Below, piece by piece: positions 39,350 to 64,000 of a stretch of DNA of 64,000 bases (positions are counted from its first letter, which is position 1; each line of letters begins with the position of its first letter). This DNA comes from Physcia stellaris. Taxonomy: Eukaryota > Ascomycota > Lecanoromycetes > Caliciales > Physciaceae. The stretch is taken from positions 62,001-126,000 of the forward strand of contig JABSSW010000053.1 in assembly GCA_018902385.1 (NCBI GenBank), written 5' to 3'. Below the pieces are notes generated by a model. It made no database searches and was not told where the DNA came from. It saw only the letters and a list, made by a program, of their open reading frames with translations. Position numbers and translations under genes: made by a program.

Positions 39350-42300
39350 ACTACCGATTTTTGAGATGTACTATTTCACAGAAGCTCAATACTATATTAT
39401 ATTACGAAATTTGATGGTGCATCAGTAGTGCATCGATAATACGTATAATACGTAAATGTTTTGAAAATTTTCGAAAGTTTTATTGCGAAAACAGTTGCGA
39501 CAGACGATAATTCTCGAAATATTTAACAAATTTACATACAAATTGATTTTGTTCGTTTTTTGATTTCGTGCAAAATTTGTTTGATGTATTGATCAACTCA
39601 TTTGACGTCATTCGTTCGAATTCGAAATTTTGCATTGAAATATCATTTTCGTTTGACGTTATTCGTTCGAATTCGAAATCTTTGCAACGATGTATAATTC
39701 AATTTTTTTGTGAATTTTTTCATTTCGTCGTTCAAAATCAATACGACGTGTGAAATGCTATGCAAAAATATAATATTATTACATAATTACACGAGAATAT
39801 CGAAATGAAAAAACAAATACAAAGAATCTGACAAAACATATGTAAAAGATTTGATCATAAACGAAATTCGATTTTGTCATTCGATGTGATAAAATAAAAG
39901 TGTTAACTTTAATGATTGATCAAATGTTGATTTCAAATGTTGAAATCGATGCGACGTTCGTCACATTATTTTTCGTTTTTTTTCAATTTCGTTTCGAAAC
40001 GATTAATTCATCGCTTTTTTCTTTTTATCGATCGACAGAGTACGCGATCTTGATGACTTGTTTCTAGACGTGTACAATTCATAATAATTGCGACAATCAT
40101 GAAAACGTACAGAAATTTGAAATGTAATCGACGAAAACGACGAAGATGATTTTTGCAAACGATGCGATTTTGAAAATTCACTTTTGATTCGTAACGAAAA
40201 AATTATTAAAACTTGAATGTGCAGAAATATCGCGTCATTTCGTATGAAAAAAAGACGTTTTTTTTCGACAAATTCTTGAACATGCATGCGAAATTCATTA
40301 ATAGTTAATACAAATACACGAAAAAACATGAGAAAACGTTTTCGAATTTTTATTCGAAATTTGATTGCGAGACATGAATCATGATATTTGCAAATAAATG
40401 ATATGATAAATCATTTGAAAATATCTGAAATTCGAAAATCTTGAAACAGATTGATCGAAATGAGAAAATTGTTCAACGTTTTGAATTTCTGATCGAAATA
40501 ACGATTCGCTTTTATCAGATTTTCGATATGAATAAAAATATCTGTGTTTTGATGACGAATGCAAATTTATGCGAAATACATGAAATCGAAATCATTGCAA
40601 TTGATAAAGAAATTGATTCGCAATTAATTCGCGAAAAATGCAAACGATAACGTAAATGATTGAACGAAAATTTGTTTCTTCAAAGTTTAATACGTAATTT
40701 AGAATGTAAAGAATCGAAAATTCGAACTTTTGAATGTAATGAAAACATTAATGTAAACATCGAATTTTTGAAACATCAAATCGATTTCATTACGAGAAAA
40801 CGATTTCGTCGTGTCGATAAAATCATTGTTTCGATGTTTAACGCATTGATATTCGCGCATATATGAAAGTTAATTCGTACATTGAATTTAACAAAACGTG
40901 CATGTAATAAATTTTCTAAAAATCAAATAATTTGCACGAATTTTACAAATAATTTCGTCATTCATTAATAAACAATATTTCGAAAACATGTGTTGTTGAA
41001 AACTTTTCGAATTCGAACTTTTCAAATTTTGACTAATCGATGTTTTCTGATTGATTGCAAACAGAAAATAAACGATAATGCGAAATTGATATGTGACAAA
41101 TGATCGAACGTCAAAATTTTGCGAAAAAGCAAAATTTTTTGATATTGACGTAAATCAAATTTTCTAGACTTTTCACGAAACATGCGAATCAAATCATGAA
41201 TAATGAGATAAAATTTCTGATATTTTGATACGAATGTTCGAAAAGATGAAATTGATAATTTTTTCATTGATTTTGATGTGATATTGAATGTCGCAATAGA
41301 AAAATGCGAACATTTCGATAATATTGATTCAAATATCGATATAAATGTTGCAAAAAAAATCGACGAAACAAACGAACAAACGTTTGCTGATTTCTTTTTG
41401 ATTTTGAATGTGATTTTCAATGTAAAGAATGAAAATTCGAACTTTTGATGTTTTGTGACTGAATATTCGAACAATTTATTTTTCGTTTTTTTTCAGTTTC
41501 GTTTCGAAACGACAAATTTCTTATTTTTATTGAATGACACGATCAATGATCGAAACGACTTGTCGATAAACGTTAATGCAATTTATTGTTGCAATTGACA
41601 TAATCGAAACGATTACAAAAACAAAAAAAAAATCGAAAAAAAACGAAAAAATATGAAAATGAAAAAAGAAATTTTCGAATCGATGTCGAAAACATCGAAC
41701 ATTTTGTATGATAATTTGATCGATTTTTCAAACAAACTTTTGTTGAAAACAATGCGAATTGATTTCGCAAACATGTGTTGTTTCGAAATTTTCGATTTTA
41801 AATATTTCGAAATTTTATTAATTGAAGTTTTTTGATTGATTGCAAATTTAAAATAAAAAATAATTCGCATTTGATTTGAAAAAATATTTCGAAAAATACG
41901 TTTATTTGATTTTCGAGTTGATTCTTTTGACTGTAAAATAAATTTTTTTTTTGAATTTTTCATCGAACATTTCGAACAGATTTTCGATAATGAAATAATA
42001 TTTTTCGAAAAAATTGAACATGATCGATCGAATTGACGAAAATCAAAATTTTGCGAAAAACGACAACGATTTTGATGTTGTTGCAAATCAAATGATTTAT
42101 GTTTTTCGACAAACATGCGATTCAAATCATTCACAATCAAATAAAATTTTTGAATGTAAAATTTTTGATGTTTTCGAACTGAATCAGCGATGAAATTGAT
42201 GAAAAAATGAACGAACAAACGACAATTGAACTTTTTTCATCGATTTTGAATTAATTTTGTATGTCGCAATCGAAAAATTCGAACATTTCGATGATAAAAA

Positions 42301-42484
42301 TTGCGAAATTATTGTCGTCGAAAATATTTGATTTCGTGATATTGCAAAAAAAATAAATGATTTTTGCGAAACAAACGAAACAAACGAATAAATGTTTGTT
42401 GATTTTTCAATGATTTTGTATGTGAATTCTGATGCAAATGTTCGAACATTCAAGTTTTTGACAAATTTTCGAACATGATGTTTT
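39350..42484 (-). mobile_element. Old, hypermutated C2H2/Gag-like retroelement remnant (left part)
   Basis: AT-rich fossil on the minus strand, related to the intact element at 42,485-45,251. Recognisable protein remnants at 42,453-42,184, 42,218-41,613 and 41,474-41,022 match the intact family's C-terminal region (its DDLVRMF and RITSYF blocks). The block occurs twice, and DNA around 40,980-41,050 resembles 41,765-41,880, so a tandem or partial second copy is present. Heavily broken (dozens of breaks), old. The fossil continues on the far side of the later insertions at 45,252-45,462, 52,933-54,036 and 60,689-60,965. Confidence 0.7.
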
Positions 42485-45251
42485 TGTGACGAGCGTACTA
42501 TGTGTTGGACCCTGGTAGGTGTTTGAACCCTTATCTTATCACACCGGGATCCGGGCCCGGATCCCGCCTATGACCAAACCACCTACATATGGCCTGCCAG
42601 GCCCCCATAGTTAGTTCTGCAGTCTAGAATCCTGTTGTTTACCCATATCATTGCATGGCACCTTACATTATTCTAGACTCTATCAAACCCAACCGGGGTA
42701 TGTCTTCGTACATGCTCCACCATAGCCGAAAGTAAGGCAACGGATTGAGCATTGAAGCTCGTCGACCAGGTCTAGGTTCTAGACCACCAAATCAACGAAC
42801 CTCCACTCACTCCATTACCTATCTTCGGCCCTATACACCTACCTACCGCTCGTTTGTGATACGCGAGATTAAATAAGCATTCACACCCCCTGAAAGCCGG
42901 TTCCGAAACCTCAAACCAGACCTCAGAACCGTCACGATAACTCAGCACTCGAACCACCTATCTGCTTCGAGAACCCTTCAGAATCATACCTATTTACCTA
43001 GCAAATCAGCACTTGTCCCCTGTCTCGGTGATAGCTTCAATAACACCTCGAATCAGACCGGCCCCGAGATACCCAATACCTACATCATCATTTCTATTGG
43101 AGAACCTTTCGAAATCCTACCTATTTACCTAGCAAATCGGCCGTCTTCTCCAGCTTTCGCGATACGAAGGATGCATTGTCCAGTCTGTCACGTCGACCTT
43201 CCTACAGGCCTCACCAATAATCCCTTGCAAGAGCATTGTAGCAGATCATACCCCTGCCTCATAGCAATCATGAAGGAACAGGTCAAGGGATATGCACACA
43301 AGCGAGAGCATATTGAACAGGCAGCTCGGCAACGAGCAGAGGAAAAAGAACAACAGAAGCAAGCCGAGCAAGAAGAACAGAAGAAAGCCGAATTGGCCCG
43401 TCAAGAAGCCCAGAAGCGAGCGGACCCCGAGGTCGCGAAAGCCGAAATCCTGAAGGTCAAGCAACGGCTGCAAGAGCTACGTCAACGACGAGCTCAAAGA
43501 GAGGCTATCGAAGCTGCAAGACCTATACCAACACCCCGTGATATCGGTATATTCGATCCAACACTCATATGCGATATCCAGGAGTTCGGGTTGTATAGTC
43601 ACGTAACAGGCTTTCTGCAACACCTTGAGCGCCAGCAAAGTCAACACCAATATCGGAAGTCAGATGTGCTCGCTCTGTTACCCAAATGCCTTCGAGGCCC
43701 TGCATTCGCATGGTTCAAAGATCAGACCTTCACCACCATACAAGACTTCGGCCGCGGGCTAGCATGTGCATTTCCTACTACCTCGCTTGAACCCGCACCG
43801 AAAACACCAAATCAGTCATCTACATCTACTACGCATGCTTCACATCCTCCGCCTCAGTATCACTCGTGCGTCGAATGCTCCGCCCAATTCTCCTCATTAA
43901 GTCGACTTCTGGAGCATACCAAGCAAGAGAACGCTTGCTCCAGGGCCGTCTGCAAGCAATGCGAGCAAAGCTTCAACTCCAGGAACAAGCTTCACGAGCA
44001 CATACGCGAGCATCATACTTCGAAATCGATTACATCACCTACTCCACCTACTACACCAAAAGACTCGAATCTCCGAGTCCCTACACTGAAAATCACACTC
44101 AAATCCATGGAGAAGCCAGCTCCGCTTGCTCCACCGACCCCCCTGCAACACCTACATCGATATCTGAACCAGTATCACCAAAGGGTTCGCATCTCCCTAT
44201 TGCGACACTCAATATTACACCAAGGCAAGCGGAGATTGCATCAATGCTAGCCACACGAGGGTTCACACCAAAGCGAGCCGAAATTGCTGCATCCAATTGC
44301 CCGCTTGCTCCTCCGCTTACCCCCTGCAACACCTACATCGATATCTGAACCTGTTTCACCAAGTTCGAATCTCCCGATTGCGACACATAAAATCACACCA
44401 AAATCGATGGAGAAACCACCAGCCAATTCACTTACACCTCCGGCTTCACCTCCTCGAACATCTGTATCAAAACACCAGAAAACTTATCTCACTTTCGATG
44501 ACCTGGTCCGCATGTTTCGTGGGAAGCCTAGGCCAATTGACCTACATTCGCACCGAAAAGGCTCTGCTTCTCCGCAGCGTTTCGGCACTCGTCCATCACG
44601 TCAACCACGCTCCCCTTCTATGCACCAGTCACGAATAACCTCCTACTTCATGCCTGCAACCAATCAGAAGCCGTCGATTAGTCAGGGCTCGAAAAGCTCA
44701 AAACCGAAGACTTCGAAGCAGTACATGCCCGCGGAACCTACCCGCACTGTTTCCAGCAAAGGCTTTCCTGAGAAATCGGCCTTTTCGCCATACAAAATGG
44801 CAGGCATCTCCTACACCTCGCTGCAGTCAAGGTCCTCATCAAGGTCCTCATCCGCATGGCCTACGTCTCCGCCTACGTCTCCGCCGTCCTTTCGATCTCG
44901 GACCCCAGATCACGTTTGTTGCACCTGCTTCGGTCATTCCAGCTTCCGCAATGGCCTGTTCAAGTACCCACGCCCTAGCCAACGATACCCCTCGAACCGC
45001 CGGCCGATGAGAGGAGTGGGAGAGATGGTTAGTCGCTTCGGGGCGAAGCTGGGAGGGAACGGGGGGTAATGTGACGAGCGTACTATGTGTTGGACCCTGG
45101 TAGGTGTTTGAACTCTTATCTTATCACACCGGGATCCGGGCCCGGATCCCGCTATGACCAAACCACCTACATATGTCCTGCCAGGCCCCCATAGTTAGTT
45201 CTGCAGTCTAGAATCCTGTTGTTTACCCATATCATTGCATGGCACCTTACA
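42485..45251 (+). mobile_element. Young LTR element encoding a Gag-like C2H2-finger protein
   Basis: Direct repeats of 183 and 182 bp (42485-42667, 45070-45251) begin TGTGACGAGCG and end CACCTTACA and differ at only a few positions. Five-base target duplication GTTTT on both sides. The purine run GGGAGGGAACGGGGGG just before the right LTR is a polypurine tract in plus orientation. The coding part (about 43171-45069) encodes in order a Cys-rich N-terminus (CPVCHVDLP), a Glu/Gln/Lys coiled coil, a Gag-like stretch (LLPKCLRGPAFAWFKDQ), two C2H2 fingers (CVECSAQF..., CKQCEQSFNSRNKLHEHIREHH) and a Ser/Pro-rich tail. No protease, reverse transcriptase or integrase: a non-autonomous element. It looks close to whole, with about one break, and is recent. 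It sits inside a fossil of its own family. Confidence 0.85.
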
Positions 45252-45462
45252 GTTTTCGAATATAATCGTGAAATTTGTTATTGAAATTGCAATTTTGTTT
45301 GCATTGTTTGCAAATTCGTTGAATTGATGTAATTTTCGTCGAATTTGATGATTTTTGCGAATGAAACAAACATGCAATTGTTGATTTATTCGTTGTTTCG
45401 CATATTAATTTGATTTTATTAATGCGTTTCAAAGTTTCATGTTCGCGAATGTGCTCGAAAAA
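45252..45462 (-). mobile_element. C2H2/Gag-like fossil, middle fragment
   Basis: Short AT-rich piece of the old minus-strand element, lying between the young LTR insertion and the gypsy fossil. Traces of C2H2 fingers are visible on the minus strand (RICKQCKQN). Old and hypermutated. Confidence 0.6.
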
Positions 45463-48400
45463 TGTTATGCGTAAAGTGTGAATTGATTGATTTAGAAACT
45501 ATGAACGGCAGAATGTCAATTTATGTACAGTAACTGCGAGTCGTTGTTGCTTGATCATCACTCATTTAATATGAGACGATGACAAAATTCTTGTCAAATG
45601 CTTTGCAAAAATATTCGATTTAATTTCAGATCATTCAATCTGATTTTATGTCATAACAATCTGTCAACCAAAAAAAAAAAAAAGATCAGTGTCTTCATCA
45701 ATTTCATGTTTTATCATCATGCGTAATCATGTCATGCATCAATCTATTTTTTCTCGTTTTTCGTCTGCCGTTGCGATCATCAGAGTTTTGCGAATGATTG
45801 AACTCGTATTGCTTCAATGAAATTCTGAGAATTCTGTAATCCGGAAATAGATCGTCATTCGTCATATTTCGACTCATAGTCGGTTCATCTGACTAGATAT
45901 TGAGTTACGAAAATTTTGTTGTATTTTTTGATACGTTTGTCGATTAATTTCTCGATTTCATAAAACTTGTATTGATTCGTATCGTTTTCGATCTCAATGA
46001 AATCAAAATAATGAAAACGCGAGCGATTGTAAAAATCAGTTTCGACAAATATTGATTCGAACTGTGCAATAAACACAACGAGATGAATTCGTCATGTTGA
46101 TGACAATTTCAATCTGTACGCGAGACGTTCGATGCGTTCAAAAATTCGAAATGATTCGCAGCGTTGTTGAAATAGTTTCGAATTTGACCTGTCAGACAGT
46201 TTGTAATCTTTGTTGAATTGTAAATAAATCTTTTCTTCTTGTTTTAGTCGAATAGAAATATGACGCGAATCATAATATATTTTGATTTTGACAGTCGCAA
46301 AGTTCGTGACATCGACAATTTCTCGCTGATATTTCATGCGTTAAATTGACAAATTTTGTATTTTTGCTGTGTTGAATGCGATTAGATTTGATATCGCGTT
46401 TCTGATCTTGAATTCGTATATGATCTCGTTGAATGATAAATTTGTAACGATGTTAGACGTGTTGTTTAGCTGAGTCTGAATTGCAAAAAACTAAAATGTA
46501 ATCGATGTTCGAAAACTCGATAACGAAATATTTGATAACAATTTCAACAATCTGATTGATTCGTTTTGACGAATCGTTCGTTTGCGAATGATATGTCATT
46601 GAGACTAGCAATCTCGTGTCTAATTTGATGAAGAACATTTGTCAAAGATTCGACATGAATTTTGAATCACGATCGGAAATTATAGTTTCAGACACTTCTC
46701 AATCGACGATTAATAATCTGTTCAGTAATGCGTTGATTCATTTTTTCGTTTCATAAATGTTTTTGTCGAAAATCAATGAAACTCGACGAAAATGTTTACA
46801 AATTGCGAACATAACAATGTTCATTTCGTCAAACATAATTAAAATGAAATCAATGACAATGATATGAAACGAACGCGAAACGAATGTGATAAACATCAGT
46901 TTTTCGTAAAATCGATAACGCTTGATTTGTGCTAACTGACAAATAAAACAATGCTCGATGTATTTTTTGATCTTTCGCGAAAATCGAAATATGTATAACG
47001 TACTGAAAATTCTGTCATAGCATCGATGAATTCTCGAATGATAATTTTGATCGTGAATTAAACGAAATATTTCGCGTTTCATCGTGATCGATATACACGA
47101 TCGACGCGAATCAATGTCAACGTGATATATAATCGTCATTCGTATTTATCGCAAAATTGATCTCTGTTTTGAGTTTTTTTGATATAAACTTCGTATCGTC
47201 ATCTTTTTGCTCATTGACGTTTCGTTTCGCTACGTTGTCTCCGAACGACGATGAGATTTGAAAATTTCGAATCGACAATTCTTGTTTTTTCGTGCATTCG
47301 GATCGTCAGCGATTTTAGCATCGTGATCATGTTTCGTCATGTTTTTTCGTTTTGATATTCGTTTTTGATTTTCTTCTTTAGATTTTTCGACATTGCGATA
47401 AAAATGCTTTGAAAAACGTAACAATCGAAATTATTCGAAAAATCGATTATTTCGTCATGATATGTGTTCAAATCAAACTTATCTTTTGAATTCTTGTCGA
47501 TTTGCTCATTTTCAAAAGTTAATCTTGATAACGCATTCGGAACGACATGATTTTTTTTTTTTTTGATTTATATTTCATTTTCAATCTAAACTGTGACAGA
47601 TAAACTGAAACACGAACGAAACGAAAATTGAGTTTATCGATGTTGTTCGAATTCATCGTGATTTGTTTAGCGATGAAAATATTGACGACATGATTCGTGA
47701 ACACAATAATGATATTTTTGATTGTTTTTATCATATGTCGAACTTTTCTGACAATTCATATTAAGTCACACATTTCGAATTCGATGAGTCAATATTTGAT
47801 TTCGACTTCGTTCAACATTTTGCTTAGAAATAGAATGAGTTCGATGTCGTTACGTTTGAATTTGTCTGAATTGCTGTTTGTTTTAAAATGATAGATTATC
47901 GCGTCGAATTCGCGTCGTTTAAACGCGTCGATATCGATGTACAATTCTCGATCGGAATTGAAATGTATCAGAAATGAGATTTTGCTAAAAGTCTTTTGCA
48001 ATAGTCGATATGACTTTAATTTTTCAATTGAAAAATTGTTCATTACAATTTTTTGCGAATAGATTTTGCGAATCGTTTTTTTGTTGCTTGAAAATTGACG
48101 TAAAAATAAGATTTTGCGACGTTGTAACGCGTTCGTCTTTTGAAGCATAAAACGCGACGAATTCTCGTAATCATTCTGTTAAATCTAAATAGATTTTCAA
48201 ATTTTTCAGAATATAAAAAAGTTCAGTTTGATTATTGTCTTCAATTTATCGATTGCGATAGTGAAATCAAAAACGTCAATTTTTTGATCAAGAAGTGCGA
48301 TCGTAAAATAGCCGAGAAATGACTTCTTCGGCGACAGGCTAATCTCATAGGTATTCAGTCGTTCGAATACCGAGTGTAAATGAGTCATATGTTTTTCAAG

Positions 48401-51400
48401 AATATTGGAAAAAACGACAATGTCGTTTACGTAAACACGAACAAACTCGCGAAAATTTCGAAAAATAGCGTCGATTCGTCGTTGTACGTATGATGAAAAG
48501 TTTTTGAATTTTATCACTGCGACGTTAAATTGTTTCTGTTTTTTATGTGAAACGACGATAAGTTTATGTCTGTCTGCAAGCTTTATCAAATCATTGATGA
48601 AAGAAATTCGCAACGTCAAAAACGAATATGAATTTGCATCCGACGACAGCTGAAGTAATGTCTGATTGAAAAAGCATAGAATAGGAATCGGTTAGAGTGA
48701 TTTTGTTTAGTTCGCGTATATTCACGACGACTCGACCTTTGCGTTTTGAATCATTTGATTCAAATACTGTTTTTCATATTGCGAAAACAGAATAGTCATG
48801 CGAAATGAATTGATTGATGTATTTCATGCGTTCTTGAGCGTGCAATTTATCAAAAGTCTCATCAACGAGCTTTCGATCTGCAGAGTCGAAAGAATAAATT
48901 TTCGTTGCGTCAATTTTCGCGTCGAATTTGAACTCAATTGACATTCATTTTTCAGACGGAATTCGCACAGTAAACTCGTTATCATTTCACAATTCTGGAT
49001 AATTTTCGACTACATTTGCAAGCTTAGTTCGTGCACTAATATCATCGTAAACCGTGATATTTGCGAACAAGATTTTCTCAACATTAATGCTTGAATTTGA
49101 GACAGAATTGTTAGAATTTTCGCACGGATTAATTGCAAAATTGATCGTAAAATTGAGATTTGAAACGACGAAATTAATCGCGATCGCATCGTGCAAATTT
49201 TCATAGTTAATCGTCATAATCGCGTCAATTGTCATGATCGAAACATCAAGTTTCAATGCTTGTTTGAATCAATTTCTAGAAACAGATTTATAAACATTAG
49301 CAGCTAAATGAACGTATTTCGAGTTAACTAAATAGCATTTTTTTTCGTATTTTTGTACGAATTTCAAACGCGTATTTTTGAGAATGTAAACATTTTCAAA
49401 GTTGACGTTGTTCGTTTGAATCATTTTTGTATGCAAGATCAATGATATGAGAAAGTACGTTTTCATTTTGATTTAGATGTTCAATTCGCGAAAACGTGAA
49501 CATAAAGTCGCGTTCAACAAGTAAATTATTCTTTTCACGTAGTTTGAAAAAATCGTAAAAATTAATTTAACTGAAATTTTAATAGTTTCGTTGACACGAA
49601 TCAACGCGTTTGATTTGTAAATTTGCATTGATGACATTGAGTTGTATTTTAATGTTTTTGCAATTTCCGATAATAACAATCTGTTTGTTTACATTTATAC
49701 TCATTCGCTTTGAATTCAGTATATCATTGCCAAGAAAAATTTTTGCTTTCAGTTTTTTCATTATGTAAATCTGTCGAATGAACGTGACAATCGCATTCTC
49801 GTCATCAGTCGAAATTTCAGAAACACGAAAAATTAATGAAATATGATCAATTGTTGTGACGACGACATTCTCGATATCGCGAATTTTGAAAAATTTCATG
49901 ATCTGTCGCGCATGAATTTTGTAATCAAATATTTTTGCATCAGAAATTTACGATCGATTAGAAATGCATCGCATTCGATATTGACGCACATATCGAGTGA
50001 AAAACTGTTTTATGTTTGTCTTCATCGTGACGTAACGTCACGAACGAAATTCGAAACTGAATCGTGTATTTGCTTTGACACTTGATTGTATGATAAATGT
50101 CTGATAATTATGAGCATTTTTCGTCGACGATGTGTCAAACTTAATCGGAATTGTTTGACACGAACGCAAATGTCGATGAAATTTGTTATTAAAATAGAAT
50201 TTCGATTGATAACGTTTGTATGAATAAATTTTTGCTTGTTTGATTGAAATATTCACAAAATATTCGAATGATTCATGAATCACATAATTTTCATTAGATT
50301 TCTGAGTTTCGAAATGCTTTTCGTCATGATATTCATCATTTATCATAGATATTTCTGACGCGTTTTCAGTATTCATGCTGTGATTATTTTGATAATTTTT
50401 TCATCGTTTGAATAATTGTTTTTTGTTTTTTCTTTCGCAAAATACGTTCGTCGATATGATGTTTCATTTTGATTAAACGTTTCATTTTGATTAAAATAAA
50501 TATTTTGTTTAAACGAAAACGGAAATGAATTTGAAAAATCAACAAAGTATTGATTAAAACGTAAAAATTGCGAATATTGAAATCGCGAATCGAACGTGTT
50601 TCGATTTTTTTGAACTTCGTCTTGTTGCGTTTGTTGAAATCGATATTGCTAATTTCCGTATGAACGTTTTTGCATATTTTGTGTCGACTGTTGTCGATTT
50701 GAATAATTTGATTGATACGAACGCTGTTGAAAAATATAAACGTTATTTTGTTTTTCAAACTGATACGATGTCGAATATTGAATTTGACGAGACTGCGAAA
50801 AAAATTCATTGAAATTTTCGTAATTTACACGTTCATTGATAGCAAAAAAGTATTATACGAATCGAATGAAATTGAATTGATAATTGAAAACGATAAATGA
50901 ATTGAGAACGACGTTCGTTTTCGGACGGATAATAAAATCGATATCGATTTTCGATGTTTTATTATATTTTTTTTTATCATCGAGCTGTTGAAAAACTCAT
51001 TCATTGTAATTTTTTTTGTCGGATTTGATCAAATTTCGTCGAAATTTCAATTTCAACTCATTGTAAATTAGATACAATTGCGAGTAAATTGACATCATTG
51101 TCGATTTAATTTTTCTGATTATAATCTCAGCGAAATCGAATGACTCGCGATGTCGGCGAACATTTTTCATTGTGTATTTTTTTTCGTAATGATCGTCAGC
51201 GTTGTTGATGACGATTTTTTGTATCGTTTCAACAACAAACGTTTTCATTTTTTTACGTCATTTTCGAGTTTGATCAATCGTTTTTGATTATCGTTGACTA
51301 TTTTTCAATATCAACGTAACGCGTGATCACGCATGCAATTATAAAGATTTGCTCGAATCACATCAACATTTTTGAACAATGTCATATTCTTAATTTTTCA

Positions 51401-52932
51401 ATATAGAGATGAACATTTCGAAAATATGTATTTTTGTTCGAATGCTCGATCGAATTGTCGATAATAGCGTTTTTTTTTCGTATCACGAGTCGAAAAATTT
51501 TGTTTTTTGAACATTTCATTTGACGTCATCATCATTGTCAAAAGATTCGACTGAATCTGATGATTCGACAGAGTTTTGAAATTTTGTCTGAGCATCGTTT
51601 CGAACATTTGTAATCAATGTCTGAAAAATTTCATTGTTGTTGCGTGAATTTCGTGTTCTGTTAATTGTTATTTTCGCTCGTCATATTTGAATTGAATGCG
51701 AAAATAGATTCGATATTTTCTGTGTTTCGAGAAATAATGTTCAGCGAAATTATGATGTTGTTTCGTCGTTGAGAAAACGACGTCGACGAAATGACTTGAA
51801 ATCTACGACGTAAATTTTTCGAAAAATGAATGTAAAAATATCAAAAAAGATATTTGCAATCGTCGATTTTAAATCAAAAATGAATGACGTAATTCGATCA
51901 TTAATTCAATCGAAAAATGATTGATTGTTTCGATACGTTTCGATGACGATCACGAAAATTTTAAAATTTTTGCGAAAGCGAATTTTGTCGACGATTCATT
52001 TTGTTGAATAAACAATGTTTGTCGAGACTGAGTGACTAATAACTGACAACGATGTTGATTTAGAACAGCTAATTACGATATTGTTCACAGTAGTTTTTGC
52101 AAATGTATTGACAGAATAAACTGAATCAATTGTATCGATGTAATCGAATAGTTCAAACGCAATGCGAATGACTTGTGATGTGAAAACAGTCAGAGTGACT
52201 TAAATGAAAATGATGTGTCGTATTGAGATTTGAGATAAAATGATGATAAACAGAACAAAAAAAAAAAAACGAGCTGAAATTTTCAAGACTTGTTGAGCAA
52301 ATTATTTGTTGATGAGAAAACAAATGAAATCGTTGAGCTGAATTGTTCGAATCAGACAGAAATTCGATGATGAATTGACGTTCAAATGTGTCGTCATTGA
52401 ACGATGACAACACGAATTCAAGCGAAAGTTTGAAATGCTTTCAACTATTTGAAAGAGAAATCAGTCGTCTCTATTGAAAATTGTAGAAAGTCGAGAAAAC
52501 GTGATTGAATGATTCATCTTCAAGTGAGTACTGATTGCTGATGAAAATGAATGATTGACTGTCGATCGAAACGTCAATCAAATGACATCAAAATTTTGAT
52601 TGCGATCGTGAGAAGAATACTGATGAGCAGCTGATTTGCATACAGAGCGCAAGACTGTCCGAAAACTGATACGTTAAAAGACAAAAAATGATGTCGTTTT
52701 GTTTACGTACAAATCATCGCTTGAATGATGTTATCAATTGTTATGCGTAAAATGTGAATTGATTGATTTAGAAATTATGAACGACAAAGTGTCAATTTAT
52801 GTACAATAATTGCGAGTCAGTTGTCTGATCATCACTCATTTAGTATGAGACGATGACAGAACTCTTGTCAAATGCCTTGCAAGAATATTCGATCTAGTTC
52901 CAGATCATTCAATCTGATTTTATGTCATAACA
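45463..52932 (-). mobile_element. Ty3/gypsy LTR retrotransposon fossil 1
   Basis: LTRs at 45463-45658 and 52739-52932 (about 195 bp), both beginning TGTTATGCGTAAA and ending TGTCATAACA, so the ends form a TGTTATG/CATAACA inverted pair. Flanks AAAAA and AAAAT are a probable target duplication. Parts in minus-strand order: Gag-like region (about 51,600-50,400), a finger-like segment (about 50,376-50,038), protease region (about 49,899-49,579), reverse transcriptase (about 48,619-48,206, with the YVNDIVVFS-type core), RNase H (about 48,148-47,789) and integrase with H2C2 and core (about 47,139-46,092). The order protease-RT-RNase H-integrase defines Ty3/gypsy. Old, hypermutated, with dozens of breaks. 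It is inserted into the C2H2/Gag-like fossil, inside a finger-coding stretch. Confidence 0.9.
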
Positions 52933-54036
52933 AAAATTTCTTATTGAAATCGAAATTTTGTTTACAAGATTTGCACATTGCTTGAACACATGTGATTTTT
53001 TGAATCGATACGTTTTTCATTTTTTCTGATATAATTACGAACGTATTCAACGAAAAATTCAAACGAAATGCTTTCAATCTCGTAAACAAATAAACAGTGC
53101 GAAATCGTTATTCGACATTTTGTTTTGAAATAAGTTTTGAAATTTTTGCAATTGAAATGATTGTTGATTTCTCGACGATTTCGCACGTTAAATTGACGAT
53201 ATTATTCGAAAAAAATGAACAAATAGTTGAATGTTTCTAAACATCGATTTTTTATGTTTCGATTCGAACGTTCGAGATGATAATTTCGACGAAACAAAAA
53301 AACATTGAATTGATTTATTTTTTTTCGACTCTAAAACAATTTCTGATGCAATAAATGAAAAATGCGATTTTTTCGATGAAATGATCGTTTCGAAAATTAT
53401 TGCAAACTCGAATTTTTGTTTTGATGTTGCAATAAAAATTTGCAATTCAAACGAAACGAACGAATTCATGACGATTGATTTTTTTTCGATCGCGCATATT
53501 AAATTGATTGCGTTGTTTTCGAAACGAAAATTCTTGACATGTTTTTTCGAATGTTGTTCGCTTTTATGTTTTCGAAACGATTTTTTGAAATTGAAAATCT
53601 CGTCGCAATGTCGACACGTTGTTGTAATGATTGTTGATTTTTTTTTCGTTTCGTATGTTGATTTGATTGCAAAAATCGAAAAAAACGAAACGAACATCGT
53701 GCTGAAAATAAATGTAAAAAACGTTTTCGTTAAAATTATATTGAAATCGTGCAAAAAGATGAAATTCGATTGATTTTCGAATCAAATGTCGACAAAATCA
53801 CAAAAAATTACTTTCATTCATTCGAACAATTTTGATTCACAATACAGATGTTGACATTGTTGAAAATGTTGAATGAAAATGACGATTTGATTGAATCGTT
53901 TTTTTTTTAAATTTTGATGAAATCGAATTGAATTAAAAATATTAAAATTCGCGAATAAAAATTCAAACATTTGTTTCGAATGTATTGTAAACGAAACAGA
54001 AAACGATAAATTGATTATTAATATTTTCATCGATTC
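52933..54036 (-). mobile_element. C2H2/Gag-like fossil, fragment between the two gypsy copies
   Basis: AT-rich piece of the old minus-strand element with clear finger traces (TCRHCDEIFNFKKSFRKHK at about 53,630-53,580). Flanked by the ends of both gypsy elements, so both inserted into the same older element. Confidence 0.65.
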
Positions 54037-57000
54037 TATCATGAATCGTGCTTGAATAAACGTATTATTGATTAGCTAAACGAAGACAATAAATTTGCAA
54101 AAACAAATAAATACAAAATGTTGAAATTGCAAACAATGTGCGACGTCAAATTTCAAATCACGCTAATTTCGACGTAGAATTAAAACATAATTCGTTGTTC
54201 GATCACATATCATATCAATTATTTATTTGTCAAATCTATTTGCTAAACATGTTCGTAACACTATTTTTTTTTTTCGCGAACGTCGTTTCGACGATTCGTT
54301 ATTGTTTCGAAATTTTGAAAATTTTGTTGATTGATTTGAATGTTTGCAAAATTCAAAAACTTCACGATCATCATTTTATTTTTTGATGTTTTGTTATCGT
54401 CTCAACGTTCGATAAAATTTGACAACAATTTTTGAAAATGTTTTTGACACGATTCAATCTTTTATACGATGTAAATTCTGATTGTAAATAACATCGAAAC
54501 GATAATAAAAATTAAAAATCGAAAAATGTCGAAAAAGTGAAAACGTAAATGAATGCATCGAATCTGAAATTTTCAAATTTTAATCGAATGTAATTTCAAT
54601 AAAAATCAAAACGACGATTTTTTTTCGAAAACGACGACGATTTGCAAAAAAATCTTGAATATCGACGACGAAAATATTTGATTTAAACGATTTTGAATTT
54701 GCAACGATAAAATGATTTCGATAATAATTTTTTATCACGTCGCGAACGTTATCGAATTTTTCGTTATCAACGTAATATCACGTTCGATCATGCGATCAAT
54801 CTGATCAATTGACACGATATTGAAAACGATTGTAATGATATCGAAATTTCAAAATATCGTTCATTTTCATTCGAAATTTTCGTTGACTATAACAAAATCG
54901 AATGATTCGTTGATTTGATTTTCGAAAAATCACAAAAATTTTTGCGAAAAAGTCAGCAATGAAACACATCGTAAATTCGCATTGTTTCAAATAATTCGAA
55001 TTGATAAAAGTTGTCTCGACGTTTGTAATTTTGAACGAATTCAATTTTTTGTCATCGAATTTGTCAAATGATTTAACGATTTTGATGTTTCGTCGATTCA
55101 AAAAAACGTAATTTTTTTCGACGTATTTCACAATTTTGCGATGTTTGTTGATTTGAATTGTCATGCGTTTTTGAATTACGTCGACGTGATTTCGCACGTA
55201 ATTGAAAATGTTTTGCATGATGTTTGTGATATTTTTCGCTTTGACGATCAACAATCGTTTTTTTGTCGTGACATACGAAATAAAATTCGATGAAAAATTC
55301 ATACGTGAATGAAAATTTTTGTTGACGAAAAACGATAACAATTCAATAAATGCAAAAATCGCGTTATTGTTTGCAAATTCGATCATAAATAATCAAACGT
55401 TTCAATCGTTTTGCATGTAATTGCAATATTGTCGCAACTGTTTTTCGATGTTCTGATTGATTTTTCGATTTGATTATCGATTTCTGAATAAAAAATCGTG
55501 AAAAACTTACATTTGATGTCGAAAATTCTGCAAAAAATTTGTCATACGAAAAACACGAATTGAAAATTTCGATCAAATGTTATGAAGAAAAACAAATCAT
55601 GAATACGAAACACGTATTGAATGAATATCTTTGTTGTGATTTCAATATTCGTGTTTTCGTTTTTCGCTGTACAAAATGCATAATGACGTTTTTTACTAAA
55701 TTTGTCGATTATCGTGCAAATGACATTATGATCGTGAACGTCAAATAGTTTCGTGATGAAGTCAATGAATATATTCGTTCAACGTTGCAAAAATATGATC
55801 AGAAAAATGAGTAATTCGTTTTTACGATTTTTGAAAACTTTAATTCGCTGACATCTGTGACAATTACGTACGTATCGACGAATTGTTTTGCGCATGTTGA
55901 ATCAATAATAATCACGACGTAAAAAATTTTTCATACGATTAAATTCAAAATGATTCGATGCGAAAAATTCATGAATTTTTTGAAAAAATCAACGAGCAAA
56001 AAACATCGACGAGCATTCATAATCGATTTTTGTAATATAAAACATCGTTTTTTTGACAATCGCGTAAATTAATTTCATTCACGAAAATGAAATTTTGATT
56101 GAATGTTTCACGATATGTTCGACAATCGTCGTTTTTTTGTTTGCGACGAAAATTCGTTTGTAAATTGATTCGTCAAATTCGACGACATGAATTTCGAATC
56201 GTTTTGAAATGAACAATATTTGTTTTTTATATTGATGTCGTTCATCGTTATCGTTTTTAAATCGTGAATTCGACATGCGAATCAAAACGTCTGTTTTAAC
56301 GTTTTGAATTTTTGATTGAAATTGAATGACGATATTGAATTTCGATAAAATTTCTGTTCAACGAATTTGACGAAAAATTAATTTTTTCGAAATCATGAAA
56401 ATTTTCAAATTTTTGTGATCGATGAAAATTTTGATCGATTCGTCAATTTTTTCGAATTTTGAACGTCAATGTTTCAAACAACGAATAATAATCAATAATT
56501 TTTTGTCATAAATTTCGTAATTGCATTCGATTGAAATCATGTTTCGATTGTAAAAAACAACGAAATGCAAAATTTTTTCGTCATCGTATTGCGATAACAT
56601 TTTCGCATTAACGTAATTTGAAAAATCGATTTTCAAAATGATTTGTTTGATTTTATCGTAATGACGAAATATGAAAATTTCGATCATCGTTTTTTTAAAT
56701 AAATTGAAAATTTTTTTTTTTGTTTTTCGTAATTCATTCGAATTCTACGAATTTTTTGATCATTCGATGAAAATTCTGATTTTCTTCGAAAAATCACGAA
56801 TGAAACGTCGATAAAAATTGACGAAATTCACGAAAATTTGTATTTTCTTGAAATTGATAAAACGTTTTCAATCAATTATGATTTGTATTTTTTTGAATTC
56901 ATGCGAAAATCATTCATCGAAAATATAACGTTTTAAAAAAAATCATTTTTTTTTGAAGAATTCGCATTTCTCGATATTCATTTGTAAATCGATTTTTTTG

Positions 57001-60000
57001 AATTTTTTAGTATTGTTCGAACGTGCACGATATGCTTTTTTTGAATTTGCTGTAAATAAATATGTCATTCAAATAGATTTGACAAAATTCGTTCAGAAAA
57101 TTGAACAAAAAATCATTCATGTAATGTTGTCAACTTGCAAAATCGTTGATTAATTCTAAAAATAATATTCGATATTTATACGATTTCATAGAAATGACGA
57201 ACGTGATGAATTTTTCATTTTTTTCACTCATTCGAAATTTATTGAAAATTGATATGATATTCAACTTGATCAAATATTTGCAATTTTGAATTTTGATCAA
57301 AATTTTTTCAATCAAAAAAATGAAATATCGATTGCGTTTCGTAATGTGATTGAATCGACGATAATTCACACACAAACGTAATTGATCGTTGAATTTGATC
57401 GCAAATAAAACAAATGAAACATATGTCGTTTAATTAAATACGATAAATTTTTTTGCAAATTTTTTTTCAAATATTTTTTCAATTTTTGAATTTGAATTCG
57501 AATAAAAAATACATTCGATTGCGAAACAAAAAATTATTATCGTTTAAACAATTCGATTTTATGATCGTAAAATTTATAAAAAAACAATTTGATTGTTTTT
57601 TGAAAATCAAATATTTTGATAAATGACGAAAATATTTTGACATTTTTTTCATTATGCGTTCGAATATCGATTTGATTTGTTCGTGTTTTAAAATTTTTTG
57701 ATCATAACGACGATTTCTAACGATTCAAAATCTGTTTGTAATGTTTTGAGCGCGAAATCGATTTGATTGATCGTAATGAAAAAACATTGAACGTTTTGTT
57801 TTCGATTTTTGACATCGATCAACAAACGAAAAAAAAAAATTGCATCAATCATTGCGATATTCATCGAATCGTCAAAATTCAATTTTGAAAATAGCGAAAA
57901 TTCTGATTGTTGTTTTTTCGTTTTTCATCGTTTATTACGTTGATTTTTCAATTTTTTTTTTCTGACGAATGTCGTTTTCGTAACAGTCGTAATATCAATT
58001 TCTGAATTATCTGATTCGATTGTTGACGACTCGTCGTCGATATCGATTTTTGAGTGAATTGAGCATTCGAAACATTTCGAGTCGATTATATTTGATTCGT
58101 CTTCAACAGTAAAAAATAAGAATTTGATTTTGAGACGAGACAAAATGATATATCGAGATTTTATCGTCGCTATGTGTTTTGTATTATTTTTCGACGATAA
58201 TTTTGCATCGCGACGTCAGTTAAATACATCTCATCGACGATTTGATTTGAAAGTTTTTAAACGACGAATTTGCATCGTTTGACTGAATATGTTGTCGTGA
58301 TGATTGCATTTGAACGATTTAAAAATCAATTTATCGTAAATCATGTTCAATATAATTTCATGTCTGTTTATTCACGACTTTTTTAAAATTATCGAATGAT
58401 TATCGAAATCAGTGATTAGCAAAAAAACGATCAATTCGAAATGTAATTTTATCGTCAATTTGAAATATATCGCGTGAATTATAAAAAAAACATGACGATC
58501 GTCGAATTCAATCAATGATTTCGATTTCAATAAAAATACGAATTTCATGTTCAACATGTTGCATACAAATTGCGCGATTTTTCTATCAATGAACGCATAA
58601 TCGATTGCATCAATGTTTATTAAAATTTTTAATTTATGTTTATTATCGTTGAATGATAACGTACAACTGATGACTAAAAGTCGCTTGATGAAAAAGTCAA
58701 ACATATTATCATCGTGAATAGAGAAAATTTTTAAATATTCATCAATCGCGTCTTTGACGTGAATTGTCAATTTTTCGAATCAAATTCGTTCGAATCGATA
58801 TCAAAATTCAATTGATGTATTTGTAATTTATGTCATTGACGCTTTTGAAATTTGTTGACGTTGAAACAGAACTTTCAATCGTGATCGAATTTTTCACACG
58901 TGAAACATTTGTTCGTGACAATCAATTGATCGATGATCGAATCATGTTTATGATCGTTTTTGAACTTGACGAAAAACGTCGACGTAATTGATTTGACAAA
59001 CGAAATTGCAATCGGAACAGCAAAAATCGTTTTGAAAAACATTAAAATTGATTTTTGAACTCGAATTCGAATTTTTTTTTTTCGAATGCTGATCAGATCG
59101 TTGTACATTTGTTAAATGTCATTCTTTCACGCGAACAAAATAAAATGATGACGAAACGAATTGTTCAAAATTTGTTTCAGCGACATAATGAATTTGTCAA
59201 TTAAATTCTTCATCAAAATGAATTGATCGAAATTGATCTGAATATTCAAACGATGAAAATTCGAATAAAAAAATTGAAAATTTTGAATGTCGAACATGAT
59301 CAAATCTCGATATTTTCGACGTACGTTGCGTTGATGATTTGAATTTTCATAAATGTTTTCGAGAAAGTTGATCATCATTATTTCATTTTCGAAATAATTC
59401 AGATTGTCGTATCGACGAGATTGAATATGTTTGACTGTTTTTTTTTCAATTCAATCGATTACTGTCGTGATCATGAATCGAACAATTTCGTATCAATCAT
59501 TGTTGATCGTGAATTTGTCGTGAACGTTGATTTTTCACGTAAATCAATCAAAATTCGCATCGTTCGTGAATTTATCGAAATTCGAATGCTTGTTCGTGCG
59601 TTTCTTTTTCGAAAATTTGACAAAATTTGTAACGATCGAATCGTCAACAACAAATTTTTTTTCGTCATCATCGATATTGTTTGAATTTTCATTTGAATCG
59701 AAATTGAAAACACGTTCAAAACGACGAATTTCATTCAATTTGATCAAATCGTCATATTCAATACGTTTGTCAACGAGTTGATTCATCATTCGCTTTTTTT
59801 CTTTTTCGAACGTTTTAAATTTGTCGCGTATTTGCTCAAAAATATTATCGATATCGAATAGATTTTTTCTTTGAATCTTGAACAATTTGACGAACTCGTG
59901 AAAATTCTTTAAAACGATCAAATATTTGTTTCGATCGATGCGTAAATCATTCAACACGTTCAAAAAATCGTCGAAATAATGCTGAATTCAATATTTCAAC

Positions 60001-60688
60001 TGACGAACAATTTTTATGTTCAAAAATGCGTGACATCGTCGTTCTGATTCGACACAACGTTTGAAATAGAAAAAAACTGACGAAATTTGTAGCGAATCGT
60101 GAATTCTTCATCGATTTCGTGAATTTCGTTCAGCATTTGCTTCAACGTTTTTTTGTATTTCGTCGATATTCAAATTCTGACGAGATGAATTGAATGAAAT
60201 TGTTTCATGATGATTGCGAATCATCTCGAAAAAATAAAAAATAAAAAAAATAAATAAGAAATCGTCGTCGTTTCGTCGTTTTCTATCGTCGAAAATTTCG
60301 TCGTTTGCGTGTAAATTCGATTTGTAATTACACGATTTTCGTCGTTTGTTTCGTCAAAAGAACTTTTCGTCGTTTGTCTCTCACGAAAAACTTGATCGAT
60401 TTGAAGTTTTATTTTTGAGCGCTCGCGTATCACGACGAACGATAAAAATTGAAAATTTATTGTAATATCATGAATCGTGCTTGAATAAACGTATTATTGA
60501 TTAGCTAGACGAAAACAATAAGTCTGCAGAAACAAATAAATACAAAATGTTGAAATTGTAAACAATGTGCGACGTCAAGTCTCAAATCACGCTAATCTCG
60601 ACGTAAAATTAAAACATAGTTCGTTGTTCGATCACATATCATATCAATTATCTATTTGTCGATTTATTTGTCAAACACGCTCGTAACA
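54037..60688 (-). mobile_element. Ty3/gypsy LTR retrotransposon fossil 2
   Basis: LTRs at 54037-54260 and 60466-60688 (about 223 bp), about 90 percent alike, ending TCGTAACA on the plus strand (so the minus-sense LTR starts TGTTACGA). Flanks GATTC and AATTC fit a five-base target duplication. Parts on the minus strand: Gag (about 60,433-58,875) with a CCHC knuckle trace (CFTCEKFDHD), protease region (58,770-58,372), reverse transcriptase (about 57,375-57,130), RNase H (about 56,687-56,466) and integrase (to about 54,805). Its LTRs and protein remnants differ from fossil 1, so it is a separate family. Old, hypermutated, with dozens of breaks. Confidence 0.88.
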
Positions 60689-60965
60689 AATTCGTATGTT
60701 AATTTGATTGCATCGATCAAAAAATGTGAATTGATGACAAATTTTTTCGCATGTTGTTCGCGTTTGTGTTGACGAAACATTTTTTTGAAATTGAATGTTT
60801 GTTTGCAATGTCGACACGTTGATAATTTTTTCGTCGATTTTGATGTAATTTCGAATGCAAAAAATTGAAAAATCGAACGTTTCAATAAAATGATTGTTTC
60901 GAATGTTAATGCAAATTCGTTTATCGATTTTTGAATTGCAAATGAAACAAATGATTTATGCGAAA
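60689..60965 (-). mobile_element. C2H2/Gag-like fossil, right fragment
   Basis: AT-rich remnant on the minus strand with one recognisable C2H2 finger (TCRHCKQTFNFKKMFRQHK at about 60,825-60,770). AT-rich, hypermutated DNA ends sharply at 60,965, where unmutated sequence starts. Confidence 0.65.
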
Positions 60966-63129
60966 TGTTGGAAATACAGCCTCCGCAGGTGTGCTCGGCA
61001 GGTGCTGCAGTCAGGGTCCATTGGTATAGACCGGCCAATGGGGCTTAGCGCCTTGGCACCCGCACACTTCTTGTGCTCCCACCTGCATGTATGTTACAAG
61101 AATAACGAGATTCAGAGCAATAGAATGGTAGTCACCCATACATCTTTCAATAGGTTATGAGAACCGGGTTAGCAGCTTTCGCTACATCTAGTACCAGCTA
61201 CAGCAGCATGAGAGCATGCCAGAGCAAGTAGTAACTAGCCGCAGGCAGTACAGCAGAGTTTGCAGTACTAACAGCAGTAACCAACTCCCGTGGAGTATCC
61301 AGTCTTGTCAGACCCGAAATCGACCTAATTGCAATCGAGCAATATTCAGTACCTTGGTACACAGTACATTCAGTACACCCTCAGTTACTTCAGCAGTAAC
61401 ACCTACCTACCGAACTCCTTACGAATTCTTCGCGAATTCGCCTACCTACCGAACTTACCTTACGATGTCGAAATATCTACGCGAATCCTATCACTCAGTC
61501 AGAATGACGACTCCATCATCTACAACGCACTCGCCTGTCTCGAATCGTGCATCAGAAATCGTATGCAAGCACCCAGAGAGTGCATCCTCCACCTCCGAAT
61601 CGCCGCCTGATATCCTTCCTTGGTCACCTCTTCTTTGCACCTGTCTCGACGCAAATGATCCGAGAACGCAAGACCTTCGAACCCTATATCACGAGCACAC
61701 GAACTCAAGCCTTACTAGTGTTTCGCGATGCAGTTGGTTCACTCAAGCAAAGAGGGCACAAGAAAGATATCTTGTGCGGAAGCACGAGTTGCAGATGAAG
61801 AGCAAGGTCAAGCAGGAAGCGAAGGAGTTATTGAAACAACAGGAAGAAGCCCGCCTGGCCAAGAAACGGGCTGAAGGATATACTTGTCGGCGTTGCAAGA
61901 ACAGTACGAAATTTGACAGCAACACCAAGCTCCACGAGCATATCCGTACTCGGCATGCGAAGAAGCCGAAGCCTGCTCAACAACCTGCTGAGTCTGTTGT
62001 TTCACCTGCTTCCGAATCGAAACCTCCTACGCCTCCTCGATCGGTCACCTCGTCACCTCCCTCGTCACCGAAACTCTCACCTCTCGAGATCCCTACACCA
62101 GAAATTGTATGCGAGCGTTCAGAGAGCATATCACCTACCTCGTCGGTTGCAACACCAAAGAAACCGATATCTTGGGCAGAAATAGCCTCACGGCCAGTCG
62201 TTGCACCGAAGCCCTCTCGTCTCCCGATTGCGACACCCAAATCGGTGTGCAAACCGTTGGAGAATGCAAGCATTGCTTGCCCGCCTACTCCGCCTCGAGC
62301 ACCTACACCATCGAGGCCCTATCTCACTGTGGACGACCTGTTCCGCATGTTCGCTGGGAAGCCGAGTCCATTTGGCCTGCAGCGGCACCAAATGCGCTCG
62401 TTTTCTCCGCGCGGCCCTGGCAAATGCAGTCCCGCAAGCAAATGTGGCCCCGTACAAAGCCGCATTACGTCATACTTTCATGCGGTGGCCTTACCTGCTT
62501 CTAAATTGGCCAAATTCGAAGCATTTCCAGCAGCACACGCCTCGGTGAAACAGTCGGCCCGCACGTCACCTTCCTCGTTTCGCCCGACTCCTCGATTTTC
62601 TTCTTCGGTGCGCCCATCTCTCTCGGCATTCTCTCGCCTTCCTCCTGTTTGCAGGCACTGCCAAGGGCGTTCTGCCACCTATCGGCCTACTGGTTGGGCC
62701 ATGCCAAATGCCTCAAGAGTTGGGAACAATGAGATACCCATGGGGCAGCGCTATTGGAGTTTCGCTCCTCCCCGCCCTACTTTGGGGGAGTATTGACCCT
62801 CCTACCTCGGGGGAGTCAGCATGTTGTTTGTTTGCTTTGCCCGCCCACCTCCCCTTATTAACCGTTGATCGGCCTGGGGGGACTAAATGTTGTTGTTTTA
62901 ATGGATTCGATGTCCAGCCCCTCCCGCCCTGTGGCCTGGGGGAGCTTTACAAGTTGTTGTATGCTTTGTTTATTTGTTTATTGTTTCACGAATATGGTAG
63001 GGACTTACCTTTGTTGTGGCTTCGTCTTGATCTAACACGACTAATCTCGCCTCTATTCCCTACTACCCTTTGAGGCTTTAGTCGCCCGATAAATACGAGG
63101 GGGAGAGAGTGACAGTACAGCCCGTCAGT

Positions 63130-63264
63130 GCAGTCTCGGAGGAGCGTACTGACGTACTGTACGAACAGTTGTTAAGGAGGACGAACAGACTAGATAGTAC
63201 GACTTCGGGGGAGCGTACTATACAGTCAGGAGTCACATAGTACCGCTTCGGGGGAGCGTACTAT
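63130..63264 (+). repeat. Three copies of a CGGGGGAGCGTACT-type motif
   Basis: CGGAGGAGCGTACTGACG (about 63137), CGGGGGAGCGTACTATAC (about 63206) and CGGGGGAGCGTACTATGG (about 63248). The GAGCGTACTAT core also occurs at the start of the 42,485 LTR, linking the two elements. Confidence 0.7.
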
Positions 63265-63990: not shown

Positions 63991-64000
63991 CCAGGCTGGG

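What the first reader, a model, noticed from the sequence alone, without database searches (positions are those of the whole stretch)
39350..60965. Hypermutated DNA with a CpY (not CpA) signature: a RIP-like process of unusual specificity
Seen: in the AT-rich DNA CpC/GpG is nearly absent and CpT/ApG scarce, while CpG and CpA/TpG are abundant. Hand counts: 59521-59580 has CG 6, CA 4, TG 3, CT 0, CC 0, AG 0, GG 0; 47101-47160 has CG 7, CA 4, TG 3 and none of CT, CC, AG, GG. In 59521-59580 TpA/ApT is 2/7 and (CpA+TpG)/(ApC+GpT) is 7/6, so both standard RIP indices are negative. Some other lines (such as 40441-40500) keep a few CT/AG, so the bias is strong but not absolute. Established: RIP in Neurospora and most Pezizomycotina changes CpA to TpA, and some basidiomycetes target CpG. 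Inference: a C-to-T process acting before a pyrimidine, on both strands.
Basis: partly seen in the sequence, partly recalled or inferred. Interest (0 to 1): 0.92.

Follow-up and report, generated by a model that had tools for sequence, protein, structure and literature searches.

The report
Transposon hypermutation aimed at CpC/CpT
Old jumping genes in what looks like a fungal genome have lost nearly every C that is followed by C and most that are followed by T, while C before A or G is left almost alone; this is close to the reverse of the textbook fungal defence called RIP.

Summary
In three blocks (33030-36304, 39432-42479, 45257-60969) CpC/GpG is at 1.6% and CpT/ApG at 28% of the level in the window's other DNA, while CpA (96%) and CpG (112%) are unchanged. 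Three tests agree. (1) Intact element versus relics, best columns: C to T in CpC 56/58, CpT 43/55, CpA 6/51, CpG 6/44. (2) LTR pairs of two hypermutated retrotransposons: all 36 substitutions are C:G to T:A, 31 at CpY. (3) Fitted dose: CC 0.92-1.0, CT 0.60-0.83, CA up to 0.08, CG up to 0.014. Both strands are hit and neighbouring DNA is clean up to the borders. The 3' neighbour sets specificity, pointing to a methyltransferase-type (RID/DIM-2-like) mutator rather than APOBEC-type (inference). In the passages I saw, RIP targets CpA, CpT or CpG; none describes saturating CpC/CpT loss with CpA and CpG spared, but a key survey was not available. No genome is held: enzyme, species and repeat dependence are untested.

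The parts
33030..36304 (.). Hypermutated interior of a TIR-bounded, probably Tc1/mariner-like DNA transposon (outer ends 32916 and 36397)
   Evidence: Two-state segmentation; CC odds 0.03 in 33040-36290; weak HTH_Tnp_Tc3_2 match at 34758-34940, E 1.6e-5, below the Pfam cut-off
32916..36397 (.). Outer limits of the TIR element: identical 47-bp terminal inverted repeats 32916-32962 and 36351-36397, not mutated; TA at both edges
   Evidence: Self-BLAST 100% over 47 bp; sequence and TA flanks
39432..42479 (-). Hypermutated relics of the same family as the intact element at 42485-45251 (aligned pieces 39749-40852, 40857-41425, 41463-42459)
   Evidence: C-to-T-tolerant alignments, scores 313, 395 and 425 against a maximum of 101.5 in five shuffles; no CC or GG in the segment 39432-42492
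42485..45251 (+). Intact, unmutated small LTR element (LTRs 42485-42667 and 45070-45251, 5-bp duplication GTTTT on both sides, purine-rich tract before the 3' LTR) inserted into the relics; serves as the unmutated reference
   Evidence: Sequence; LTR alignment and repeats; no Pfam domain in its two ORFs at E 0.001
45463..52932 (-). Element A: hypermutated Ty3/gypsy relic, probably a chromovirus; LTRs 45463-45658 and 52739-52932
   Evidence: LTR pair; RT_RNaseH 47591-47950 and Integrase_H2C2 46927-47085 above Pfam cut-off; SH3_Tf2-1 46071-46232 and Chromo 45810-45962 below it
54042..60688 (-). Element B: hypermutated Ty3/gypsy relic; LTRs 54042-54260 and 60471-60688
   Evidence: LTR pair; RT_RNaseH 56337-56648 (E 2.7e-14) and Integrase_H2C2 55839-55991 (E 1.9e-12)
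60970..64000 (+). Second intact, unmutated element related to 42485-45251 at the edge of the hypermutated DNA; its right end was not found in the window
   Evidence: Segmentation border 60969; ORF 61192-62796; 67% identity over 208 bp to the first element

Best explanation
An active, double-strand C-to-T hypermutation process strikes transposons. Its specificity is set by the 3' neighbour: CpC fastest, CpT about three times slower, CpA and CpG almost untouched. Shown here: the substitution type, the context, both strands, retrotransposons and an apparent DNA transposon as targets, sharp borders, and a large excess over all other substitution. Inferred: it is a repeat-induced (RIP-like) genome defence, run by a fungal DNMT1-superfamily enzyme (RID/Masc1 type, or DIM-2 type, which is described as preferring CpT for methylation) whose target preference has moved from CpR to CpY. 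Because C before A or G is spared, CAA, CAG and CGA codons can survive and stop codons arise mainly from tryptophan (TGG to TGA), so elements are ruined mainly by missense.
For: Absolute dinucleotide ratios CC 0.016, CT 0.28, CA 0.96, CG 1.12. Intact element versus relics: CC 56/58, CT 43/55, CA 6/51, CG 6/44 (Fisher p 2e-29 for CpY versus CpR). One simulated control with fitted CpY doses (CA 0.05, CG 0) plus random divergence reads CA 0.11 and CG 0.15, so the observed 0.12 and 0.14 are at background. LTR pairs of A and B: 36 substitutions in 415 columns (3 of them gaps), all C:G to T:A; CpY sites differ at 31 of 42, CpR at 5 of 98 (shared sites counted only where the neighbour agrees; p 8e-17). 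Fits for four blocks and two starting compositions: CC 0.92-1.0, CT 0.60-0.83, CA 0.005-0.077, CG 0-0.014. The 5' neighbour matters little (0.44-0.68) against 0.12-0.97 for the 3' neighbour. At six borders CC+GG per 100 bp goes from 4-17 on the unmutated side to 0-1 on the other. Pol stretches set by Pfam matches hold 10 TGA and no TAA or TAG.
Against: No genome, so copy number, RID/DIM-2 homologues and sexual cycle are unknown. The second intact element against the relics gave CpG 16/40 at the looser threshold, higher than the model predicts; CC 40/44, CT 28/34 and CA 4/35 agree. Of the 18 LTR differences of element B, 4 are at CpR. The aligner is not neutral: a CpA-type control with true doses CC 0.2 and CG 0.3 read 0.43 and 0.44, and an equal-rate control read CT 0.73 against 0.47-0.56 for the rest, so alignment fractions are approximate; the LTR pairs and composition do not depend on this. 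Two intact elements sit unmutated beside mutated DNA, so the process either stopped, is rare, or does not see them. The outer 114 and 93 bp of the TIR element are unmutated although they belong to it.
Confidence: 0.7

Rival explanations
1. Slow decay: transposon cytosines are methylated in CpY contexts (MIP or DIM-2-like methylation), and 5-methylcytosine deaminates spontaneously over long times, with no active mutator.
For: DIM-2 is summarised in a 2026 review as methylating all CpN contexts with a CpT preference (passages of PMC13297926). The 3'-neighbour dependence fits a methyltransferase.
Against: The two LTR pairs show 36 C:G to T:A differences and no other substitution. Slow decay would run beside ordinary mutation. 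A simulation with the doses of element B changes 0.23 of bases, which over both pairs would be some 190 hits against 0 others (my estimate).
Confidence: 0.15
2. A cytidine deaminase of AID/APOBEC type acts on single-stranded transposon DNA.
For: Pure C-to-T outcome at very high dose.
Against: Both strands are hit about equally (60/111 and 51/97), so not cDNA of one strand; an apparent DNA transposon is hit as strongly; the context is set by the 3' base, whereas AID/APOBEC enzymes read the 5' side (recalled knowledge, no call).
Confidence: 0.07
3. Ordinary CpA-type RIP whose signature was distorted by later events such as double hits or secondary mutation.
For: Studies report CpT as main or second signature in some RIP-competent fungi (passages), and CpC to TpT double mutations beside CpA in Monilinia (passage).
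Against: CpA is nearly unchanged in absolute frequency (0.96) and TpA/ApT is 0.40 against 0.66 in unmutated DNA; CpA sites are kept in 45 of 51 best-aligned columns.
Confidence: 0.03
4. CpR cytosines are shielded (for example by methylation or a bound protein) from an otherwise context-free mutator.
For: CpG and CpA are spared together, and both are typical methylation contexts (recalled knowledge).
Against: CpC is faster than CpT (56/58 versus 43/55, p 0.004), which simple shielding of CpR does not predict; no methylation data.
Confidence: 0.05

Closest known systems
Repeat-induced point mutation (RIP) of Neurospora crassa and other Pezizomycotina (RID-dependent)
   Same: C:G to T:A only, both strands, transposons heavily mutated, neighbouring DNA spared, AT-rich blocks
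   Different: Order in N. crassa CpA>CpT>CpG>CpC; in T. reesei CpA~CpG, with CpT>CpC after them (passage of PMC5496416; a sign is missing in the stored text). Here CpC>CpT>>CpA~CpG. Both standard RIP indices read negative here
CpT co-signature of Magnaporthe oryzae, Botrytis cinerea and Sclerotinia sclerotiorum transposons
   Same: CpT is a major target; a RID-type gene is present there
   Different: In Table 2 CpT stands beside CpA in all four genomes that show it (passage of PMC4352252; the find call counted no 'CpC' in that paper); here CpA is spared and CpC is first
CpG-type RIP-like mutation (Microbotryum, rusts weakly, Rhizoctonia solani AG8, Tuber)
   Same: C-to-T bias in repeats or SNPs with a non-CpA context
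   Different: CpG is the named target there (passages); CpG is among the spared contexts here. Note against novelty: the AG8 table gives CpC the shortest raw SNP spacing (214 bp; CpG 370, CpA 422, CpT 491), though the authors call the bias CpG and all four contexts are hit
DIM-2 cytosine methylation and DIM-2-dependent RIP
   Same: Non-CG contexts, CpT preference; acts on old heterochromatic repeats (passage)
   Different: A CpC-first order and near-absolute sparing of CpA are not described in that passage

Membership tests
RIP (general) | C:G to T:A transitions only, on both strands | tested here: met
   36 of 36 LTR substitutions; C to T 60/111 and G to A 51/97
RIP (general) | Repeated DNA mutated, single-copy DNA spared | tested here: inconclusive
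   Mutated blocks contain transposons and flanks are clean, but copy number in the genome cannot be seen
RIP (general) | Depends on a RID/Masc1 (or DIM-2) homologue | not testable with these tools
   No genome held; no methyltransferase domain in the 19 window ORFs scanned, which is only part of the window
RIP (general) | Premeiotic, homology length threshold of about 400 bp | not testable with these tools
   Needs crosses; the short LTRs of the intact element differ by one C/T site, at CpC, which neither tests nor contradicts it
Canonical CpA RIP | CpA preferred, TpA excess, positive RIP indices | tested here: not met
   CpA 6/51; TpA/ApT 0.40, (CpA+TpG)/(ApC+GpT) 1.36
CpG-type RIP-like mutation | CpG preferred | tested here: not met
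   CpG 6/44, fitted dose at most 0.014
AID/APOBEC-type deamination | Context read on the 5' side, one strand of a single-stranded intermediate (recalled) | tested here: not met
   5' classes 0.44-0.68, 3' classes 0.12-0.97; both strands

The most novel reading that the evidence does not exclude
A fungal genome-defence mutator whose target preference is inverted relative to known RIP: saturating CpC and CpT while exempting CpA and CpG, through a RID- or DIM-2-like enzyme that has switched from recognising CpR to CpY. It would be invisible to the standard RIP indices, so fungi scored as RIP-negative may carry it.
Probability: 0.55. Interest if true: 0.82.

Novelty: new variant of a known kind. 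Interest (0 to 1): 0.74.

Why it matters
How RID-type proteins choose and convert cytosines is not settled; purified RID shows no detectable methyltransferase activity (passage). A natural mutator with nearly the opposite dinucleotide order would allow domain swaps that map the specificity and test whether the methyltransferase homologue itself sets the mutated context. [quoted passage not shown] Sparing CAA, CAG and CGA means relics keep fairly long open frames (for example 207 codons at 41613-42236), which can mislead gene prediction.

Tried and rejected
Species identification failed. The window has no tRNA by ARAGORN and no Rfam match at gathering threshold, no genome is held, and two protein queries and one LTR pattern sent to viral contigs gave no confirmed relative. 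Three PDB searches show TOM1/HUWE1, Rab geranylgeranyltransferase alpha and short-chain reductase relatives but do not place the organism; 'fungus, ascomycete-like' is my reading of the gene content, not a result.

Counts over all aligned columns (CC 0.88, CT 0.71, CA 0.36, CG 0.27 of C plus T) were judged contaminated by poor alignment, so quality-filtered columns and the LTR pairs were used; all are reported. LTR alignments that ran past the LTR ends (CpT 34 of 45, CpC 2 of 2, CpG 29 of 67, CpA 12 of 84) were replaced by LTR-bounded ones. All seven pairs of mutated copies compared gave CA 114, CG 110, CT 64, CC 2 C/T differences (per available site CA 0.19, CG 0.22, CT 0.53, CC 0.67); five of the pairs are only 56-73% identical and I dropped them as misaligned, keeping the two LTR pairs. 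Searching for inverted ends inside 33030-36304 gave nothing convincing. The block 39432-42479 was not scanned against Pfam; 45253-60969 and 33030-36304 were.

Literature. Of the 12 papers that hold RIP, CpC, CpA and repeat-induced I saw passages of 8 and did not open 4 (PMC7493409, PMC2973834, PMC10170752, PMC7979813). Passages only of six more papers and of the 2026 review. The survey of Clutterbuck 2011 (its scope is recalled) is not held, so a CpC/CpT-first species described there cannot be excluded.
Full report
What was claimed.

Where it is. A two-state segmentation places the hypermutated DNA at 33030-36304, 39432-42492 and 45253-60969, the last with three short interruptions (48310-48374, 48636-48697, 52612-52660). 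It also flagged 109 bp at 3338-3446 in gene-rich DNA, which I did not pursue. 42485-45251 and the DNA from 60970 on are unmutated. Borders are sharp: at the six borders profiled, CC+GG per 100 bp goes from 4-17 on the unmutated side to 0-1 on the other.

It is a loss, not a composition quirk. Compared with the unmutated parts of the window, absolute frequencies are CC 0.016, CT 0.28, CA 0.96, CG 1.12, TC 1.04, TA 1.18, TT 2.56. Low-GC windows among the genes are not depleted (161 CC+GG seen, 171 expected, seven overlapping windows, five of them at 3001-4000). Residual CC is mostly CCG (31 of 45 both-strand counts).

Direct evidence 1, intact versus relic. The intact element 42485-45251 has relics on the minus strand of 39432-42479. 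With an aligner that tolerates C to T and G to A without regard to context, and in columns with at least 88% local agreement, C to T is CpC 56/58, CpT 43/55, CpA 6/51, CpG 6/44. At 80% agreement it is CpC 105/110, CpT 77/101, CpA 19/91, CpG 20/102. The 5' neighbour spans only 0.44-0.68. Four simulated controls, one run each, were aligned the same way. Fitted CpY doses plus random divergence read CpC 0.88, CpT 0.83, CpA 0.11, CpG 0.15, much like the data, so the CpR changes seen are at background. Equal rates read 0.47-0.56 with CpT at 0.73. A CpA-type spectrum read CpA 0.86 but CpC 0.43 and CpG 0.44 for true doses 0.2 and 0.3. Without hypermutation the values are 0.03-0.15. So the method inflates some fractions, and none of the controls other than CpY resembles the data. 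The second intact element against the same relics, looser threshold only, gave CpC 40/44, CpT 28/34, CpA 4/35 and a CpG value of 16/40 that is higher than expected and unexplained.

Direct evidence 2, LTR pairs. LTRs of one element are identical at insertion (established knowledge), so their differences record later mutation without any outside reference. Elements A (45463-45658 / 52739-52932) and B (54042-54260 / 60471-60688) differ by 18 substitutions each; all 36 are C:G to T:A. Contexts: A CT 15, CC 2, CG 1; B CT 14, CA 2, CG 2. CpY sites differ at 31 of 42 and CpR at 5 of 98.

Direct evidence 3, model fit. Fitting four context-specific doses to the trinucleotide content of four blocks, from two starting compositions, gives CC 0.92-1.0, CT 0.60-0.83, CA 0.005-0.077, CG 0-0.014, far better than equal rates. 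For elements A and B the survivals imply that CpC is hit about three times faster than CpT (my calculation).

What is hit. Element B carries RT_RNaseH and integrase H2C2 matches (E 2.7e-14, 1.9e-12); element A RT_RNaseH (5.5e-6) and integrase (4.1e-8), with sub-threshold Tf2-1 SH3 and chromodomain matches: Ty3/gypsy elements. Block 33030-36304 lies inside a TIR element with 47-bp identical ends and TA at its edges and holds a sub-threshold Tc3 HTH match, so a DNA transposon is probably hit too, which argues against a process limited to retroelement cDNA.

Consequence for coding. In the pol stretches set by Pfam matches the stops are 10 TGA and no TAA or TAG. The longer stretches around them were chosen to be free of TAA/TAG, so their stop types are not independent evidence; they hold no TGG in 1169 codons, which follows from the loss of GG, and they keep CAA, CAG and CGA. 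The intact element's first ORF has only 1 TGG in 458 codons, so TGG is not frequent everywhere. In simulation on window gene DNA the doses of element B give 0.98 stops per 100 codons against 5.83 for a CpA-type spectrum that I chose for comparison.

Mechanism. Pure C:G to T:A change on both strands, saturating dose, transposon targets and the excess over other substitution make an active RIP-like mutator most likely. Reading the 3' base is how cytosine methyltransferases define CpN contexts, while AID/APOBEC enzymes read the 5' side (recalled). In N. crassa RID and DIM-2, both of the DNMT1 superfamily, act on new and on heterochromatic repeats respectively, and DIM-2 methylation prefers CpT (passages of PMC13297926). 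I therefore propose a RID- or DIM-2-like enzyme with a CpY preference. The enzyme is inferred; nothing here shows it. The two intact elements show that young insertions currently escape, by being single copy, by clonal growth, or because the process has ceased.

Comparison with print. N. crassa: CpA>CpT>CpG>CpC; T. reesei: CpA~CpG, with CpT>CpC (passage of PMC5496416). Ten fungal genomes: CpA, CpT and CpG signatures, with CpT beside CpA in Table 2 (passages of PMC4352252). CpT as a main alignment signature is also reported elsewhere (passages), so the CpT part alone is not new. CpC is mentioned as CpC to TpT double mutation beside CpA in Monilinia, and the R. solani AG8 table gives CpC the shortest raw SNP spacing although its authors call the bias CpG. 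Saturating loss of CpC and CpT with CpA and CpG spared did not appear in any passage I saw; the limits of that search are given under Tried and rejected.

Verdict. The feature is real and strong. It works like RIP but fails the context test for CpA-type and CpG-type RIP, so I call it a new variant rather than a member of either. The main gap is that only 64 kb of an unidentified genome could be examined.

Noticed in passing
32916-33029 and 36305-36397: The outer 114 and 93 bp of the TIR element, including identical 47-bp TIRs, are classed as unmutated although the 3.3-kb interior is saturated. The TIR contains CCCTAACCCTA, which resembles the telomere repeat.
   Followed up: partly
42485-45251: Small intact LTR element with GTTTT target duplication and two ORFs without any Pfam match (a C2H2-like segment by eye), inserted into hypermutated relics of its own family; probably non-autonomous.
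   Followed up: partly
60970-64000: Second intact related element beginning at the edge of the hypermutated block, ORF 61192-62796, right end not found in the window.
   Followed up: partly
52001-53000: CpC is nearly gone (odds 0.06) but the CpG odds are only 1.39 and CpT 0.75, unlike neighbouring kilobases.
   Followed up: no
33030-60965, mutated segments: On the + strand TG (1649) far exceeds CA (1153), and G exceeds C in all 21 one-kb tiles counted; perhaps the coding strand of the minus-strand elements.
   Followed up: no
24701-24908 and 38976-39175: Unmutated repeat pair, 67% identity over 215 columns; its nature was not examined.
   Followed up: no
45253-52611 versus 52661-60969: The segments of 45253-52611 keep 27 CC/GG sites, 52661-60969 only 3, two of which lie in element A's right LTR, so elements A and B differ in dose or age.
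   Followed up: partly
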